Source: Patescibacteria group bacterium
GTDB taxonomy: Bacteria; Patescibacteriota; Saccharimonadia; Saccharimonadales; Saccharimonadaceae
Assembly: GCA_030916565.1 (NCBI GenBank)
Contig: JAUPWL010000006.1
Span: forward strand, 1 to 33,488
Direction: 5' to 3'
DNA: 33,488 nucleotides
The first letter of the stretch is position 1. Every line of letters starts with the position of its first letter. The notes under the pieces are model-generated. The model was given only the letters and a program-made list of their open reading frames with translations. It made no database searches and was not told where the DNA came from. Both the position numbers and the translations under genes were made by a program. This document shows positions 3,791 through 11,981 of this stretch, piece by piece.

Positions 3791-5092
3791 TTATTTTGCA
3801 TCGAGGATAACGAGATGTTCGATATGTGGCGTGCGTGGGAAGAAATTATAGCCAATATGGTGACGAATGCCATATTGTTCAGCCATTCTGGCAACATCAC
3901 GCGCCTGGGTCACTGGGTTACAGCTGAGGTAGATAATACGCTTTGGTCGTGATTCAATGAGTTTCTCGACAACTTTTTCGTGCAATCCGGCCCGCGGCGG
4001 GTCAACAATGATCGTTGCGTCGGCGCTAATGTAATCAAGGGCGTTTTCACTGGCGGCGAGGATAGCCTTTGCCCCCGTTTTGCCGAGTTCTTCAATATTT
4101 TGTTCCATTTCGCGGACAGCATGTTCATTCAGTTCGACCAGTGTGACATTGTCGCCACCAATCGTCAGACCGATGGAGCCAACGCCACTATAGAGATCGA
4201 CGACTGGTTTGTCTGGTTTGACCCATTGCTGCATTTCGGTGAGTGCCTGTTCGTACACTGGTATATTAATCTGGAAAAACCCTTCGGTAGCATAGCGAAA
4301 CGGTACATCCAGAATAGTGTCGGTGAGTATGCGATCGCTGCTAGCGGCGAGGCGTTCGGTAATGACACTGGCTGGTGATTTGGGGTTAGAATAAATGATC
4401 TCAGCACAGATAACCTCTGGTGCGACGGCTTTTTCTAGTACGGCATTCGCATCAAAATCTTGGTCTTTGACATATAACTGCCAGGCGATTTCACCGCTGT
4501 CGTTACTGCGGATCAATAGTGTTTTTAATGATCGCCCATCAACGCCCAGATCACGGAGCGTCTGGAGAGCGAATTTGGCTGCGTTATTGATAGCTGGACT
4601 TGCGAGACTCGTATCCTGAACGGTGATTTTACCGTGCGTCCCTCGACGGAAAAATGCCAAATCTAGCTCTTCTCTTTCAGTGTCGTACCAAAAGCTATAT
4701 TCAACTTTGTTGCGGTATTCATATTGTCTGCCATCGCTCCATACGTTAATTGGTTCGGGCAGGACGATGTCATGTAGCTCGAACGCTTCTTCGATGAGGG
4801 CCGCTTTGTAATGGTTTTCTGATGCAAAATCCATGATTTGCCATGGGCTGGTTGACAGATAGCTGTCAGGATCGCGCGGAGCAACGCGCGCCGACGATGC
4901 TTCAATGACCTCTGTTACGACGCCCTCGACATAGCTCGATTTCTTTTTGGTGAGTTGGACGACGACCCTTTCACCTGGGAGACCGCCCCAGACGAGGCAT
5001 TTTTTGCCATCATCGAGGGTACCGATCGTCTGACCGCCACCGATAATTCGTTCGAGTGTTAACTCAACTTGTGGTAAAGGTTTTTTTGCCAT
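3791..5092 (-). CDS. class I SAM-dependent RNA m5U methyltransferase (TrmA/RlmC/RlmD family, RumA-like)
   Basis: TRAM-like N-terminus, VDLYSGVGSIGL SAM motif, VDPPRAGLHEKVVE and YLSCNPVTQARD catalytic motifs. Confidence 0.93.
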   Translation of the reverse strand: MAKKPLPQVELTLERIIGGGQTIGTLDDGKKCLVWGGLPGERVVVQLTKKKSSYVEGVVTEVIEASSARVAPRDPDSYLSTSPWQIMDFASENHYKAALIEEAFELHDIVLPEPINVWSDGRQYEYRNKVEYSFWYDTEREELDLAFFRRGTHGKITVQDTSLASPAINNAAKFALQTLRDLGVDGRSLKTLLIRSNDSGEIAWQLYVKDQDFDANAVLEKAVAPEVICAEIIYSNPKSPASVITERLAASSDRILTDTILDVPFRYATEGFFQINIPVYEQALTEMQQWVKPDKPVVDLYSGVGSIGLTIGGDNVTLVELNEHAVREMEQNIEELGKTGAKAILAASENALDYISADATIIVDPPRAGLHEKVVEKLIESRPKRIIYLSCNPVTQARDVARMAEQYGIRHHIGYNFFPRTPHIEHLVILDAK

Positions 5093-5128: not shown

Positions 5129-5157
5129 TTGACAATAATGCTAAACTATGATAGTAT
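5129..5157 (+). promoter_or_regulatory. sigma70-like promoter for the 5156-7519 gene
   Basis: TTGACA (5129-5134), 17-nt spacer, TAGTAT (5152-5157). The track's TTG start at 5129 coincides with the -35 box. Confidence 0.6.
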
Positions 5158-7519
5158 GAAAAATAGTATGGTAATGAAAAACTCATCTACCACTGTCGAA
5201 GAATTCAACCCATCCAAAGACAACTCTCAAGGCGGGTTTGCTGAAGTACACAATAACAGTAGTGCAGAGCTATTCGATATATCTGACTATATGGTTGCCG
5301 CTATCCGTGGCGAAGAACTCCCTCGATCTGCCGAAACGGCTGCCGACACAACAACTACCGGGATAGGCAAAGTAGCCGTCGCTGGAATGATGGGTTGGAG
5401 TAAGCTGATCGACCGTCGCGCTCGCAAAGAGGAAAAATTACAAAAACGTTTAGAAAAATTTGAAGTTACTGATGAAGATTCGCGTTGGACAAAAACCAAG
5501 AAGTTTCTTGGCCGTCGTGCCGTATTAGCAGGTTTTGCTGCGACATCCGTGACTGGACTGGTTGCCGCAATGGCAACAACTCGTGGTATTGAACTCGGCG
5601 CTGTACTGGCGTCGGACAATATTAATATGCTGCCTGTGACGTATGAGTTCAGTAATATTATTATTGCTGGTGGCGCCGGTCAGGGTGACCCTACTGGTGT
5701 TATTGGCGAGATGCAGACTAAAGGTTTACATGATGGATTTAATATCGAAGGTGTTTATTACCCTGCTCAGATCGGTCCTGTCGTTGGTCAAGAGACCATG
5801 TACAATTCAGGTGTGATTGGTGCGAACGAGATGTATGCTAAGGCAATTGATGATCTTAATGCCGGTCGTCCAACAGAACTCATTGGATATTCGGAGGGAT
5901 CATATGTTGCACTCCACACGGCCAACCGGATTATTGCCGAAAACGGCGGCGTGAAACCCGATAACTTGTCGGTAACAATTATAGGCTCTCCTTATGCGCA
6001 AGGCGGTATTTTGGGAAGTAACAACCCATTTGCCAAAACCGCAGGTCCTATTTTGGATATGATGGGTATTCCAAAGGGTGAAACAGTGCCCCCAGGAACA
6101 CATATTGTGTACTATGACACTGATTTTTGGGCGAACAGTGGTAACCAAGTACCTACAACGATGTTGCGTCAGTTGATTGAGTTAGCCGCCGGCGGTCATG
6201 CGATTCCAGATCCTAATGACTCATGTTATACATTTACCGACAGTGACGGTGTGATCCATACTGTGTATAGTCGTAACGATGTTATTTTGCAGGCACTCAT
6301 GGATAGTACTGGTTTGTACGTTGCCGACACCGCATCTGCTAACCGCGCAATTAACGACCTCTTCCCTCTTGATGGCAGTGGGCCAAATGTTGCGCAATTC
6401 AAAGAAGATCTTATTACAACACTCAATCATCAGGGTGACCCAGTCAGTCTGTTTATGGCGCAGTTTGTCCGTAACTTACCGCCAGAGTACACCAAACTGG
6501 GTCAGGTATCTATGGACTCATTCAATACTATCGCCGAAGGCGCCGCCCGTGTTGGATCGGGTGACGTAATCGGTGGTATGCAGCAAATTATGGCCGGCAT
6601 CACCGCCTTTATGAATACGCTGCAAGAAATCGCCCCTCGTACAAACGCGAGCGTCGGCGCTCAAAACACCCAAGCGCAGGTGACGCAACTGCTCAGCAGT
6701 AATATTACTGGTCTTGTACAACAGATAACCGGACGCAACTTTAGTACGCAAATCAATGGATTTATTAATCTTTCTCAGGCGGGCGTTAGCGGTAATGTGA
6801 CAATTGGCGTCAACTCTGACGTTGCAAACCAGTTCCTGAACATCGTCAGTAACCATGTTTCAACGACCGACGGAACTGTTACAAATAGCCGCAATCTACA
6901 ATTTGAATTGAACGGTCTCGTGAACGATACACTGAACAACAAATCGCCACTTGGTGGTCTGACTGTCCATACAGAGGGTTCAGTATCGACATTATTTACT
7001 CCACCGTCTGGTCCACGTCCCCTGCACGATATCTTGAATAACATGTTCCCTGATGCACCGAATAATAATTCTGTACCCGAAGGTATCACTCCGCCACCAG
7101 CGGCGACTGTTCCTGTGACACCTGAAATATCGACACCTGCAGTGACCGTTCCGACGTATAATGCGCCTGCACCTGTACCGGTTGCCCCAGCCCCAGCGCC
7201 AATCGAAGCGCCAACGCCACCACCATTTAAGGAATCTGCACCTGCGCCGGCACCTGTCGTTGAAGCCCCTGCCCCAGCTCCGGCTCCAATTGAAGCCCTC
7301 GCCCCAGCTCCAGCGCCTGCTCCAATCCCTGCACCCGCGCCTGCGCCAAATCCCCTTTCAAATATCGTGACGAGGATTTTTAGCGCTCCAGAAGCCTCAG
7401 CGCCTGCTCCAATCCCCGCACCCACTCCGGCTCCCGCGCCTATCCGCGTACCGGTTCTTCCGATAACGCCTATCCCTGCGCCGACATCAGCCGCTTCTGC
7501 CAATCCATTTGCAAAATAA
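5156..7519 (+). CDS. membrane-anchored/exported PE-PPE-like alpha/beta-hydrolase domain protein with long Pro/Ala-rich C-terminus
   Basis: RRAVLAGFAATSVTGLVAAMA export/TM segment; GGAGQGDPTG...VYYPAQIGPV...ELIGYSEGSYVALHTANRI...VTIIGSPYAQGGI resembles the PE-PPE (cutinase-like) domain with GxSxG nucleophile; C-terminal AP/PAP repeats. Start may be 5156, 5168 or 5174. Confidence 0.7.
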   Translation: MKNSMVMKNSSTTVEEFNPSKDNSQGGFAEVHNNSSAELFDISDYMVAAIRGEELPRSAETAADTTTTGIGKVAVAGMMGWSKLIDRRARKEEKLQKRLEKFEVTDEDSRWTKTKKFLGRRAVLAGFAATSVTGLVAAMATTRGIELGAVLASDNINMLPVTYEFSNIIIAGGAGQGDPTGVIGEMQTKGLHDGFNIEGVYYPAQIGPVVGQETMYNSGVIGANEMYAKAIDDLNAGRPTELIGYSEGSYVALHTANRIIAENGGVKPDNLSVTIIGSPYAQGGILGSNNPFAKTAGPILDMMGIPKGETVPPGTHIVYYDTDFWANSGNQVPTTMLRQLIELAAGGHAIPDPNDSCYTFTDSDGVIHTVYSRNDVILQALMDSTGLYVADTASANRAINDLFPLDGSGPNVAQFKEDLITTLNHQGDPVSLFMAQFVRNLPPEYTKLGQVSMDSFNTIAEGAARVGSGDVIGGMQQIMAGITAFMNTLQEIAPRTNASVGAQNTQAQVTQLLSSNITGLVQQITGRNFSTQINGFINLSQAGVSGNVTIGVNSDVANQFLNIVSNHVSTTDGTVTNSRNLQFELNGLVNDTLNNKSPLGGLTVHTEGSVSTLFTPPSGPRPLHDILNNMFPDAPNNNSVPEGITPPPAATVPVTPEISTPAVTVPTYNAPAPVPVAPAPAPIEAPTPPPFKESAPAPAPVVEAPAPAPAPIEALAPAPAPAPIPAPAPAPNPLSNIVTRIFSAPEASAPAPIPAPTPAPAPIRVPVLPITPIPAPTSAASANPFAK
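7161..7500 (+). repeat. low-complexity Pro/Ala (APAPAPxP) coding repeat region
   Basis: Repeated gcgcctgctcca/gccccagctccg units encoding APAPAPIPAPAPAP. Confidence 0.85.
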
Positions 7520-7569
7520 TCTTTCGCTCTCGTCCAGCTATACACTGCGCCAAAGCGCCGAAATAGTCG

Positions 7570-7599
7570 AAATCCACCCCTGTTATGGGTGGATTTTTG
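7570..7599 (+). terminator. Rho-independent terminator after the PE-PPE-like gene
   Basis: aaatccaccc-ctgttat-gggtggatttttg: 10-bp stem plus T-run. Confidence 0.8.
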
Positions 7600-7878
7600 T
7601 TGGGAGAAAATCACTATACTTTCTATAAAGTTTCAACATGTTGTAGCATAAGCTTCAATACTGTTGTATAAAAAACATACTACGCAAAACCTACTATGCC
7701 ATATCTGTTGCAAAGCACCAGCTTATTACTTATTGAGAATCTGCTTTCATATCTGTAAAAACACCCCCTTACCTCCGTTCTTAGCTGTGAGATATTTTAC
7801 GTTGACTTATATCATGGGTTTGATGTAATCTCACCGCACAACTTATAACATGAGTGGGAAAGATAGGGGTTTTACATT

Positions 7879-8985
7879 ATGCCAAAAGCAAAAATAGCGT
7901 CTGGCGAGAGTATCGTTAAGAGCGAACGCAGGACTAATTTGCTGCCACGAGCAGTTGTTGTTGGTCTGGGCGGCTTTGCTGCAACAATCACGTTTGGTGC
8001 TGGTGTCGGTCATGCGGATACCAATATTTATGTCGGTGGATGCGGCGACAAGAACAGTCAATATCCTGTTGACCGCGCTATTCAAGACGGTCGTTACAAT
8101 TTCAACGCGAACAACATTCAGATTAACTACCCTGCCTCAATGGCACCAATCTGTGATGACGGTTTCGGAACAAAAACAGGTGTATCGATTGCTGACGGTG
8201 GTCAGAAAGTCGTAGATGCTTACTACGCTAACAGCTGGGACAAAGTGAACGTCGAAGGCTTCTCGATTGGCGCTGGTGTTGTTGACTGGGCTGCCATGAA
8301 GCTTGCTGCTGATCACGGTGGACAGCTTCCGAGAAATGTAAACATGGTTGCAATCGGTGATGGTTGGAATCCTGTTGGTATTCAGAATCATCCGTTTGCA
8401 CCACTAATTTCACCAATCACTAAGGGTATACTTGATATTCCAACAACTCATGATTTGCATCCAGTAGCGGGTGTGACTCAAGTTATTGACGCAGGTGACC
8501 CATATGCGACTATGAACGTTGCGCCACTAAACTTAGGTGAGCAGATCACGAAGTTCGCACGTGTCGGTCAGGACCACCGTATCCCGAACATTGGTAATGA
8601 GCCATATACGGAAGTTCAGCGTGATGGCGTGAACTATCAGATATACGGTAACGATCGCAACAGCGCAATCAACCAGGCAATCCAAGAAGTTGGTGTTGAT
8701 CCAGGTCCAATTGGCACACCATTCTTTAATGTGATTGCTCCACAGGATGATCCGGCAAACGTATTGAACCCACCTGCGCCACTTCCACAGAGTGGTCCAG
8801 TTGTTCCAGATTTAAACATTGTTGGTCCTGCGCCTCGTGATGTGTTTGAAAACATATTGCCATATAATGACAATACTGTTGACGTTGTACCACCACGCTC
8901 GACAGTGCCGAGTTTCTTTGGTGAGCAGCCATGCTTTGCCCCAGATGGTTCACAGTACTTCACTCCTGGCGACGCTCCTTGCTAG
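7879..8985 (+). CDS. second exported PE-PPE-like domain protein (tandem paralog, short)
   Basis: Signal peptide LLPRAVVVGLGGFAATITFGAGVGHAD; KVNVEGFSIGAGVVDWAAMKLAADHGGQLPRNVNMVAIGDGWNPVGIQNHPFAPLISP aligns by eye with the upstream protein's IGYSEGSYVALHTANRIIAENGGVKPDNLSVTIIGSPYAQGG...NNPFA; Cys pairs consistent with an extracytoplasmic location. Confidence 0.7.
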   Translation: MPKAKIASGESIVKSERRTNLLPRAVVVGLGGFAATITFGAGVGHADTNIYVGGCGDKNSQYPVDRAIQDGRYNFNANNIQINYPASMAPICDDGFGTKTGVSIADGGQKVVDAYYANSWDKVNVEGFSIGAGVVDWAAMKLAADHGGQLPRNVNMVAIGDGWNPVGIQNHPFAPLISPITKGILDIPTTHDLHPVAGVTQVIDAGDPYATMNVAPLNLGEQITKFARVGQDHRIPNIGNEPYTEVQRDGVNYQIYGNDRNSAINQAIQEVGVDPGPIGTPFFNVIAPQDDPANVLNPPAPLPQSGPVVPDLNIVGPAPRDVFENILPYNDNTVDVVPPRSTVPSFFGEQPCFAPDGSQYFTPGDAPC

Positions 8986-11043: not shown

Positions 11044-11072
11044 ATAAAATTTGTGATGGTACAATGAATCAT

Positions 11073-11981
11073 ATGAAAATAGCTATCTCGGGCCTGGGGC
11101 GCATGGGCGGACAAATCGCGCGCAAATTACATGAAAACGGACATACTGTTGTGGCACACAACCGCAGCCCAGAAAAAGTCGACGAAGCCAAAACATACGG
11201 TGTAATTCCTGCGTATTCAGACCAAGAAGTGATTGATGCATTTGGTGGTGACCCTGTTGTGTTATGGATTATGCTGCCTGCAGAAGTCATCGACAGCAAG
11301 ATTGATGAATGGCTGCAAATATTGCCAAAAGGCAGCATTATTATCGATGGTGGCAATAGCGATTATCGTGGTGATGCCGCACGTGCAGAACGTGTGAATG
11401 CCGCTGGTAGCACGCTGCTCGACATCGGTACGAGTGGCGGTGTATGGGGTCTGCAAAACGGTTTCTCGATGATGGTCGGCGGCGATCAGTCATCCTACGA
11501 CGCTGTCGTACCGGCACTCGATACACTGGCACAACCACGCGGTGGTCATCAATTCTTTGGTACCAACGGCACTGGTCATTTTGTCAAAATGGTTCATAAC
11601 GCGATTGAATACGGCATGATGCAATCACTCGCCGAGGGATACCGCGTGCTCAAAGAAGGTCCATATCCTGATTTGGATTTGGCAGCCGCCGGAGATATTT
11701 GGCAACAATCAAGTGTCGTGACGAGTTGGTTGAATGATCTGACGCGACAAGCGCTCCACGAAAACCCGAATATGGATGGCATTAGTGGTGTTGTTGCCGA
11801 ATCGGGCGAAGCACGTTGGACGTTGGAAACCACCAAAGAATTGGGTATTCCAATGCCTGCAATTCAAGCATCATTTGATGTGCGTCTCGCATCACAGCAG
11901 GGACAGGTCGACTTTTCGACGAAATTGCTGGCTGCAATGCGCAATAAATTTGGCGGCCATAATATTGACGGCAAGCAATAG
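11073..11981 (+). CDS. 6-phosphogluconate dehydrogenase, decarboxylating (short-type)
   Basis: MKIAISGLGRMGGQIARKL (Rossmann), IIDGGNSDYRGDAARAE, DIGTSGGVWGLQNGFSMMVGG, GTGHFVKMVHNAIEYGMMQSLAEGY. ATG 11073 lies 7 nt after TACAAT. Confidence 0.93.
   Translation: MKIAISGLGRMGGQIARKLHENGHTVVAHNRSPEKVDEAKTYGVIPAYSDQEVIDAFGGDPVVLWIMLPAEVIDSKIDEWLQILPKGSIIIDGGNSDYRGDAARAERVNAAGSTLLDIGTSGGVWGLQNGFSMMVGGDQSSYDAVVPALDTLAQPRGGHQFFGTNGTGHFVKMVHNAIEYGMMQSLAEGYRVLKEGPYPDLDLAAAGDIWQQSSVVTSWLNDLTRQALHENPNMDGISGVVAESGEARWTLETTKELGIPMPAIQASFDVRLASQQGQVDFSTKLLAAMRNKFGGHNIDGKQ

What the first reader, a model, noticed from the sequence alone, without database searches (positions are those of the whole stretch)
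5156..8985. Tandem exported PE-PPE-like hydrolases in a predicted Saccharibacterium: candidate host-envelope effectors
Both proteins show an export signal and a shared segment (IGYSEGSYVAL...NLSVTIIGSPYAQGG...NNPFA versus VEGFSIGAGVVDW...NVNMVAIGDGWNPVGIQNHPFA) resembling the PE-PPE serine-hydrolase domain known mainly from mycobacteria. Established knowledge: cultivated Saccharibacteria are epibionts of Actinobacteria, some mycolate-bearing. A PE-PPE-like enzyme in such an epibiont could be host-derived and act on host lipids or glycolipids.
Basis: partly seen in the sequence, partly recalled or inferred. Interest (0 to 1): 0.75.

Follow-up and report, generated by a model that had tools for sequence, protein, structure and literature searches.

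The report
Exported PE-PPE hydrolases in a Saccharibacterium
An ultra-small bacterium of the Saccharibacteria carries neighbouring genes for two exported enzymes of a lipid-ester-cutting family known mainly from mycobacteria and their relatives, and its genome also encodes enzymes of the two families known to digest that kind of cell wall, so the pair may help it feed on or breach waxy-walled host bacteria.

Summary
Both genes (P1, 5156-7519; P2, 7879-8985) encode proteins with an export signal or membrane anchor and a divergent PE-PPE domain (PF08237): P2 scores 31.4 bits and the P1 ectodomain 38.6, against a cut-off of 21. The Ser-Asp-His triad is present in both and invariant in the 13 sequences of their branch aligned here. 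The organism is a Saccharibacterium: MAG HKST-UBA63 has the same gene order and an 82% identical P2.

The genome holds two more PE-PPE proteins of ordinary mycobacterial type, plus GH183 and GH172 arabinan-degrading enzymes, the pair described in the mycolata parasite Ca. Mycosynbacter amalyticus. All 7 GH183-bearing genomes among 295 in the family also match the P1/P2 profile.

The 'host-derived' idea must be split. P1/P2 form a Saccharibacteria-only branch, and P1 sits between trmA and glgB in four genera, so it looks old and vertically kept. The paralogues elsewhere in the genome interleave with Mycobacteriales and look acquired.

Best reading: membrane-anchored (P1) and secreted (P2) serine esterases or acyltransferases acting on the lipid layer of mycolate-bearing hosts. 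Catalytic class is well supported; substrate and role are inferred. Structure models were poor (pLDDT 45) and no activity is shown.

The parts
5156..7519 (+). P1: 787-aa membrane-anchored PE-PPE-type hydrolase (about 120-aa N-terminal region, TM 122-140, catalytic domain about 160-385, helical region, Pro/Ala-rich tail)
5519..5575 (+). P1 single hydrophobic segment (residues 122-140), predicted membrane anchor
   Evidence: Kyte-Doolittle maximum 1.82
5636..6334 (+). P1 PE-PPE-type catalytic domain used for profile A3 and the tree
5891..5893 (+). P1 predicted nucleophile Ser246 in GYSEG
   Evidence: invariant column
6122..6124 (+). P1 predicted triad Asp323
   Evidence: invariant column
6197..6199 (+). 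P1 predicted triad His348
   Evidence: invariant column
7184..7423 (+). P1 Pro/Ala-rich stretch near the C-terminus (65% P+A over 80 aa from residue 677)
   Evidence: tails of varying richness in relatives
7570..7596 (+). 10-bp hairpin (AAATCCACCC-CTGTTAT-GGGTGGATTT) between P1 and P2, probable transcription terminator, suggesting separate transcripts
   Evidence: read from sequence; not listed by the scan
7879..8985 (+). P2: 368-aa exported PE-PPE-type hydrolase with signal-peptide-like N-terminus
8263..8265 (+). P2 predicted nucleophile Ser129 in GFSIG
8497..8499 (+). P2 predicted triad Asp207
8575..8577 (+). P2 predicted triad His233
3791..5092 (-). RNA uracil-5 methyltransferase with TRAM domain (trmA/rumA-like); conserved left neighbour of P1
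9022..11043 (+). glgB-like branching enzyme; conserved right neighbour
11064..11981 (+). 6-phosphogluconate dehydrogenase (gnd); conserved neighbour

Best explanation
P1 and P2 are catalytically intact alpha/beta serine hydrolases of a divergent, Saccharibacteria-specific branch of the PE-PPE domain family. P1 is held in the parasite's membrane by one N-terminal anchor with its catalytic domain outside; P2 is secreted. I think they attack ester bonds in the outer lipid layer (trehalose mycolates, mycolyl-arabinogalactan or other acylated glycolipids) of a mycolate-bearing actinobacterial host. They would work beside the GH183 and GH172 arabinan-degrading enzymes of the same genome, to open the host envelope locally and/or release acyl chains for uptake. 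Shown: domain, triad, relatives, genome context. Inferred: export route, host type, substrate, role.
For: PF08237 over the curated cut-off for both. Profile-profile match of the P1/P2 family to actinobacterial/phage PE-PPE proteins over 220 columns, E=6e-15, probability 98. Ser, Asp and His invariant in the 13-sequence family alignment whose other members are only 22-35% identical to P1; P2 under purifying selection (pN 0.106 against pS 0.685). Genome G000 has two further canonical PE-PPE proteins (E 2.8e-51 and 9.2e-37), one 36% identical to a Mycobacterium riyadhense PE-PPE protein. G000 encodes GH183 (E 1.7e-61) and GH172 (1e-35), the families reported in the Gordonia parasite Ca. M. amalyticus (PMC10115798). 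GH183 occurs in 7 of 295 family genomes and all 7 also match the P1/P2 profile (naive Fisher p 2e-9, but one genus supplies 6 of the 7). In a phylum-wide sample PE-PPE matches occur in 5 of 384 genomes, all in this taxonomic family.
Against: No activity, substrate or localisation data. The host of this organism is unknown. AlphaFold models are poor (mean pLDDT 45). P1/P2 match mainly the first 60% of the Pfam model (4-140 and 4-123 of 228), so substrate specificity may differ from that of mycobacterial members. Genomes G384, G387, G388 and G389 have P1 but no GH183.
Confidence: 0.6

Rival explanations
1. Lipid-salvage enzymes: the hydrolases release fatty acids from host or environmental lipids (phospholipids, triacylglycerol, general esters) for a parasite that cannot make its own. 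They are not specifically aimed at mycolates.
For: Generic serine-hydrolase chemistry; the top fold matches are general esterases and thioesterases. Saccharibacterial bins lack phospholipid synthesis (PMC12592800). Some P1-bearing genomes lack GH183.
Against: The family is PE-PPE, which is centred on mycolate-bearing Actinobacteria and their phages (PMC3037379). It is not detected in most genera of the same Saccharibacterial family, which presumably share the lipid need.
Confidence: 0.25
2. Envelope maintenance of the parasite itself: the enzymes are acyltransferases that decorate the Saccharibacterium's own surface with acyl groups taken from the host, much as the PE-PPE proteins Chp1/Chp2 act in Mycobacterium tuberculosis glycolipid synthesis (from my own knowledge).
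For: P1 is membrane-anchored and kept at one chromosomal place in four genera, which suits a housekeeping role. The PE-PPE relatives of known function include acyltransferases (own knowledge).
Against: Great sequence divergence with tandem paralogues (three copies in G391) and additional canonical copies looks more like an interaction trait; absent in related genera.
Confidence: 0.12
3. Inactive or binding role: the domain works as an adhesin, with the long Pro/Ala tail as a stalk, and catalysis is not needed.
For: Long low-complexity tails in P1 relatives; rapid divergence outside the motif positions.
Against: All three triad residues are invariant in the 13-sequence alignment and complete in 37 of 39 rows of the wider one (one Asp to Glu, one truncated row).
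Confidence: 0.03

Closest known systems
PE-PPE domain proteins (PF08237) of Mycobacteriales, in particular stand-alone forms such as Rv1184c and Rv3822
   Same: Domain model, GxSxG/S motif, Ser-Asp-His order, alpha/beta-hydrolase secondary structure, export; profile-profile E=6e-15
   Different: No PE or PPE N-terminal domain; match covers mostly the first 60% of the model; long Pro/Ala tail and cytoplasmic N-terminal region in P1; separate branch in the tree; from Saccharibacteria, not Actinobacteria
Cutinase family (PF01083), including mycobacterial cutinase-like proteins (PDB 3aja and 5w95; 5w95 is Rv3802c from my own knowledge)
   Same: Same fold class; the best PDB profile hit is 5w95 at E=0.011
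   Different: P1 below the Cutinase cut-off (15.0 against 25.9 bits); P2 no hit
Phage lysin B (mycolylarabinogalactan esterase)
   Same: Serine hydrolase acting on the same proposed layer; the only phage matches to P1 are Gordonia lysin B proteins
   Different: That match is not significant (E 0.7-0.9); lysin B acts from inside at phage exit
GH183/GH172 arabinan-degrading pair of Ca. Mycosynbacter amalyticus (PMC10115798)
   Same: Same proposed purpose (attack on the mycolata envelope); both families present in this genome
   Different: Act on arabinan, not on lipid esters; not homologous

Membership tests
PE-PPE domain (PF08237) | Score over the curated cut-off of 21 bits | tested here: met
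   P2 31.4 bits; P1 ectodomain 38.6 bits; full-length P1 missed by hmmscan
PE-PPE domain (PF08237) | Pentapeptide GxSxG/S (PMC3037379) | tested here: met
   P1 GYSEG at residues 244-248, P2 GFSIG at 127-131
PE-PPE domain (PF08237) | Conserved Ser, Asp, His triad in that order (PMC3037379) | tested here: met
   S246/D323/H348 and S129/D207/H233 align with canonical members; invariant in A3
PE-PPE domain (PF08237) | Serine alpha/beta-hydrolase fold | tested here: inconclusive
   pLDDT 45; strand-helix order fits and Foldseek's best matches are alpha/beta hydrolases (P2: 29 at E<=0.001; P1: none, with arginases also listed)
PE-PPE domain (PF08237) | Full-length domain match (228 positions) | tested here: inconclusive
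   HMM match stops at 140 (P1) and 123 (P2); hhalign to actinobacterial members covers 220 columns
PE/PPE protein families | N-terminal PE or PPE domain | tested here: not met
   No Pfam hit in the P1 N-terminal region or elsewhere in P2
Cutinase (PF01083) | Score over the curated cut-off of 25.9 bits | tested here: not met
   P1 15.0 bits; P2 none
Phage lysin B | Significant similarity to lysin B | tested here: not met
   P1: E 0.7-0.9; P2 not tested against phages
PE-PPE domain (PF08237) | Esterase/acyltransferase activity | not testable with these tools
   needs purified protein
Host-derived (recent transfer from Actinobacteria) | Window proteins nest inside actinobacterial PE-PPE sequences | tested here: not met
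   P1/P2 branch separate, 98/99 support; limited to 4 plasmid and 2 phage comparators

The most novel reading that the evidence does not exclude
P1/P2 define a Saccharibacteria-specific class of surface-tethered and secreted mycomembrane esterases. With GH183/GH172 it would make up a layer-by-layer kit by which an ultra-small parasite opens a mycolate-bearing host, and its presence would predict host type from the genome.
Probability: 0.35. Interest if true: 0.85.

Novelty: new variant of a known kind. Interest (0 to 1): 0.64.

Why it matters
How Saccharibacteria get through or feed on the waxy outer layer of mycolata is open; PMC12592800 cites a report that host mutations in mycolic-acid synthesis give resistance to Ca. 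Mycosynbacter amalyticus. A conserved, exported lipid-ester hydrolase family found with arabinan-degrading enzymes gives named genes and catalytic residues to test. It could help predict host type from uncultured genomes and might yield enzymes against the mycobacterial envelope. No paper in the searched open library links PE-PPE with Saccharibacteria or Patescibacteria.

Tried and rejected
1) Direct PDB search with P1, P2 and the C20 paralogue: no meaningful hit; the profile gave only 5w95 at E=0.011.
2) Relatives of P1 in viral contigs: none.
3) P1 and P2 against plasmids by tblastn: no match at E<=1.
4) AlphaFold with 4 sequences: pLDDT 45, so the models are used only as weak support; only window and the search for related loci sequences were allowed, which kept the alignment shallow.
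5) The many weak PF08237 hits in genus g3 (about 0.7 Mb genomes) come, in those examined, from cutinase-like proteins with a domain that reads like von Willebrand factor A, not members of this branch (tree).
6) Contamination by host DNA: rejected. P1/P2 lie between conserved Saccharibacterial genes in four genera, some canonical PE-PPE genes of the genus lie on contigs that appear to hold ribosomal-protein genes (read from sequence), and GC of the loci is ordinary.
9) Rose et al. 2025 (PMC11880426) is not held; known only through its citation.

Full report
Observation. P1 (5156-7519, 787 aa) has a charged N-terminal region, one hydrophobic segment at residues 122-140, a domain at about 160-385, a predicted helical region and a Pro/Ala-rich tail (65% P+A over 80 residues). 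P2 (7879-8985, 368 aa) has a signal-peptide-like start. They share about 230 aa at 28% identity, E=3e-11. A 10-bp hairpin at 7570-7596 suggests separate transcripts, so 'tandem' is right but 'operon' is not shown.

Family. P2 passes the PF08237 cut-off (31.4 against 21 bits) and so does the P1 ectodomain (38.6 bits). Full-length P1 is missed by hmmscan, probably through its biased tail, but the six-frame genome search finds it. The family profile A3 (13 sequences from 9 genomes) aligns with six actinobacterial/phage PE-PPE proteins over 220 columns at E=6e-15. PMC3037379 defines the domain by GxSxG/S, a Ser-Asp-His triad and an alpha/beta-hydrolase fold. Motif and triad are met: S246/D323/H348 in P1 and S129/D207/H233 in P2. 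The three columns are invariant in A3 and complete in 37 of 39 rows of the wider alignment, the exceptions being one Asp to Glu and one truncated row. The fold is only weakly supported: models have pLDDT 45, the strand-helix order fits, and Foldseek's best matches are alpha/beta hydrolases for P2 (29 at E<=0.001) and thioesterases for P1 (none at E<=0.001, with arginases also listed). P2 against its 82% identical orthologue shows pN 0.106 and pS 0.685, so it is under purifying selection.

Organism and distribution. The relative found in the titled collection is Candidatus Saccharibacteria bacterium HKST-UBA63; its contig length of 11,035 equals that of G385:C97, so G385 is very probably that genome. 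PF08237 is found in 9 of 10 genomes of the genus; the tenth, G389, has a P1 relative. In a phylum-wide sample of 384 genomes only 5 match at E<=1e-5, all in this taxonomic family. The A3 profile matches 20 of 295 family genomes, the weakest hits being canonical or cutinase-like proteins.

Genomic place. P1 stands between a trmA-like gene and glgB (then gnd) in the genus. The same order, with a few extra genes inserted in some, is seen in G200 and G453 (g7), G415 (g341) and G437 (g363), three other genera. In nine genomes of nine further genera the neighbourhood of the trmA homologue has no such gene and no glgB next to it, with one insignificant profile hit. In G391 three related genes stand in tandem. 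This points to an old, vertically kept gene with local duplication.

Phylogeny. With four cutinase-like proteins as outgroup, P1/P2/P3 and two proteins of other genera form one branch (98/99). The canonical branch (98/96) mixes the genus's other PE-PPE proteins with Mycobacteriales and mycobacteriophage proteins. Holding all Saccharibacterial PE-PPE together is rejected (p-AU 1.4e-6), as is holding the genus's canonical copies together (0.017). Caveats: few actinobacterial rows, long branches, and groups named after seeing the tree. So the host-derived idea fits the canonical copies (C20, C53 and others) better than P1/P2.

Host. G000 has GH183 and GH172. These D-arabinan-degrading families are reported in mycobacteria or other mycolata, and in the Gordonia parasite Ca. 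Mycosynbacter amalyticus, where the GH183 is a predicted surface lipoprotein (PMC10115798). GH183 occurs in 7 of 295 family genomes and all 7 match A3, but G390's match is weak (4e-5, to a canonical copy) and six of the seven share one genus, so the naive Fisher p of 2e-9 overstates independence. G200 (single contig, 1,081,308 bases) has a GH183 with a lipobox-like LSSC, GH172 and a P1 at the trmA-glgB place; it may be Ca. M. amalyticus, which I could not confirm.

Mechanism. Most likely the enzymes cut or transfer acyl esters in the outer lipid layer of a mycolate-bearing host, P1 tethered to the parasite and P2 released. Steps shown: sequence family, triad, conservation, genomic company. Steps inferred: export, host, substrate, role. 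Rivals: general lipid salvage, acylation of the parasite's own surface, a non-catalytic role.

Verdict. A real and, in the library searched, unreported divergent branch of PE-PPE hydrolases in Saccharibacteria: a new variant of a known kind, with good testability.

Noticed in passing
G000:C20:10362-11012 (L001, L085) and G000:C53:1558-2232 (L002, L086): Two further PE-PPE proteins of canonical mycobacterial type in the same genome, E 2.8e-51 and 9.2e-37; they interleave with Mycobacteriales in the tree.
   Followed up: yes
G000:C13:14008-14904 (L051, L087) and G000:C5:18581-19246 (L116): GH183 (DUF4185) and GH172 (DUF2961) arabinan-degrading enzymes in the window's genome, the pair known from Ca. 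Mycosynbacter amalyticus.
   Followed up: partly
L006, L007, L008, L033-L049 (mostly genus g3): A widespread exported protein with a cutinase-like domain (GYSQG) followed by a domain that reads like von Willebrand factor A (DSTGSM...) in the small-genome genus g3; it cross-hits PF08237. Function unknown here.
   Followed up: partly
L078:4783-9974: Three P1/P2-type genes in tandem in genome G391, a local expansion.
   Followed up: partly
L095 (NC_051623.1 gene 90) and related RefSeq phage records: Mycobacteriophage proteins similar to PE-PPE hydrolases are labelled 'DNA binding protein' in RefSeq but 'hydrolase' or 'esterase' in GenBank originals, likely a misannotation.
   Followed up: no
L091:6947-9909 (G385:C90): Genes that look like a phytoene-desaturase-type oxidoreductase and a prenyltransferase-like membrane protein on the same contig as a canonical PE-PPE gene (read from sequence only).
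   Followed up: no
window 7570-7596: Strong hairpin followed by T-rich sequence between P1 and P2, missed by the terminator scan.
   Followed up: no
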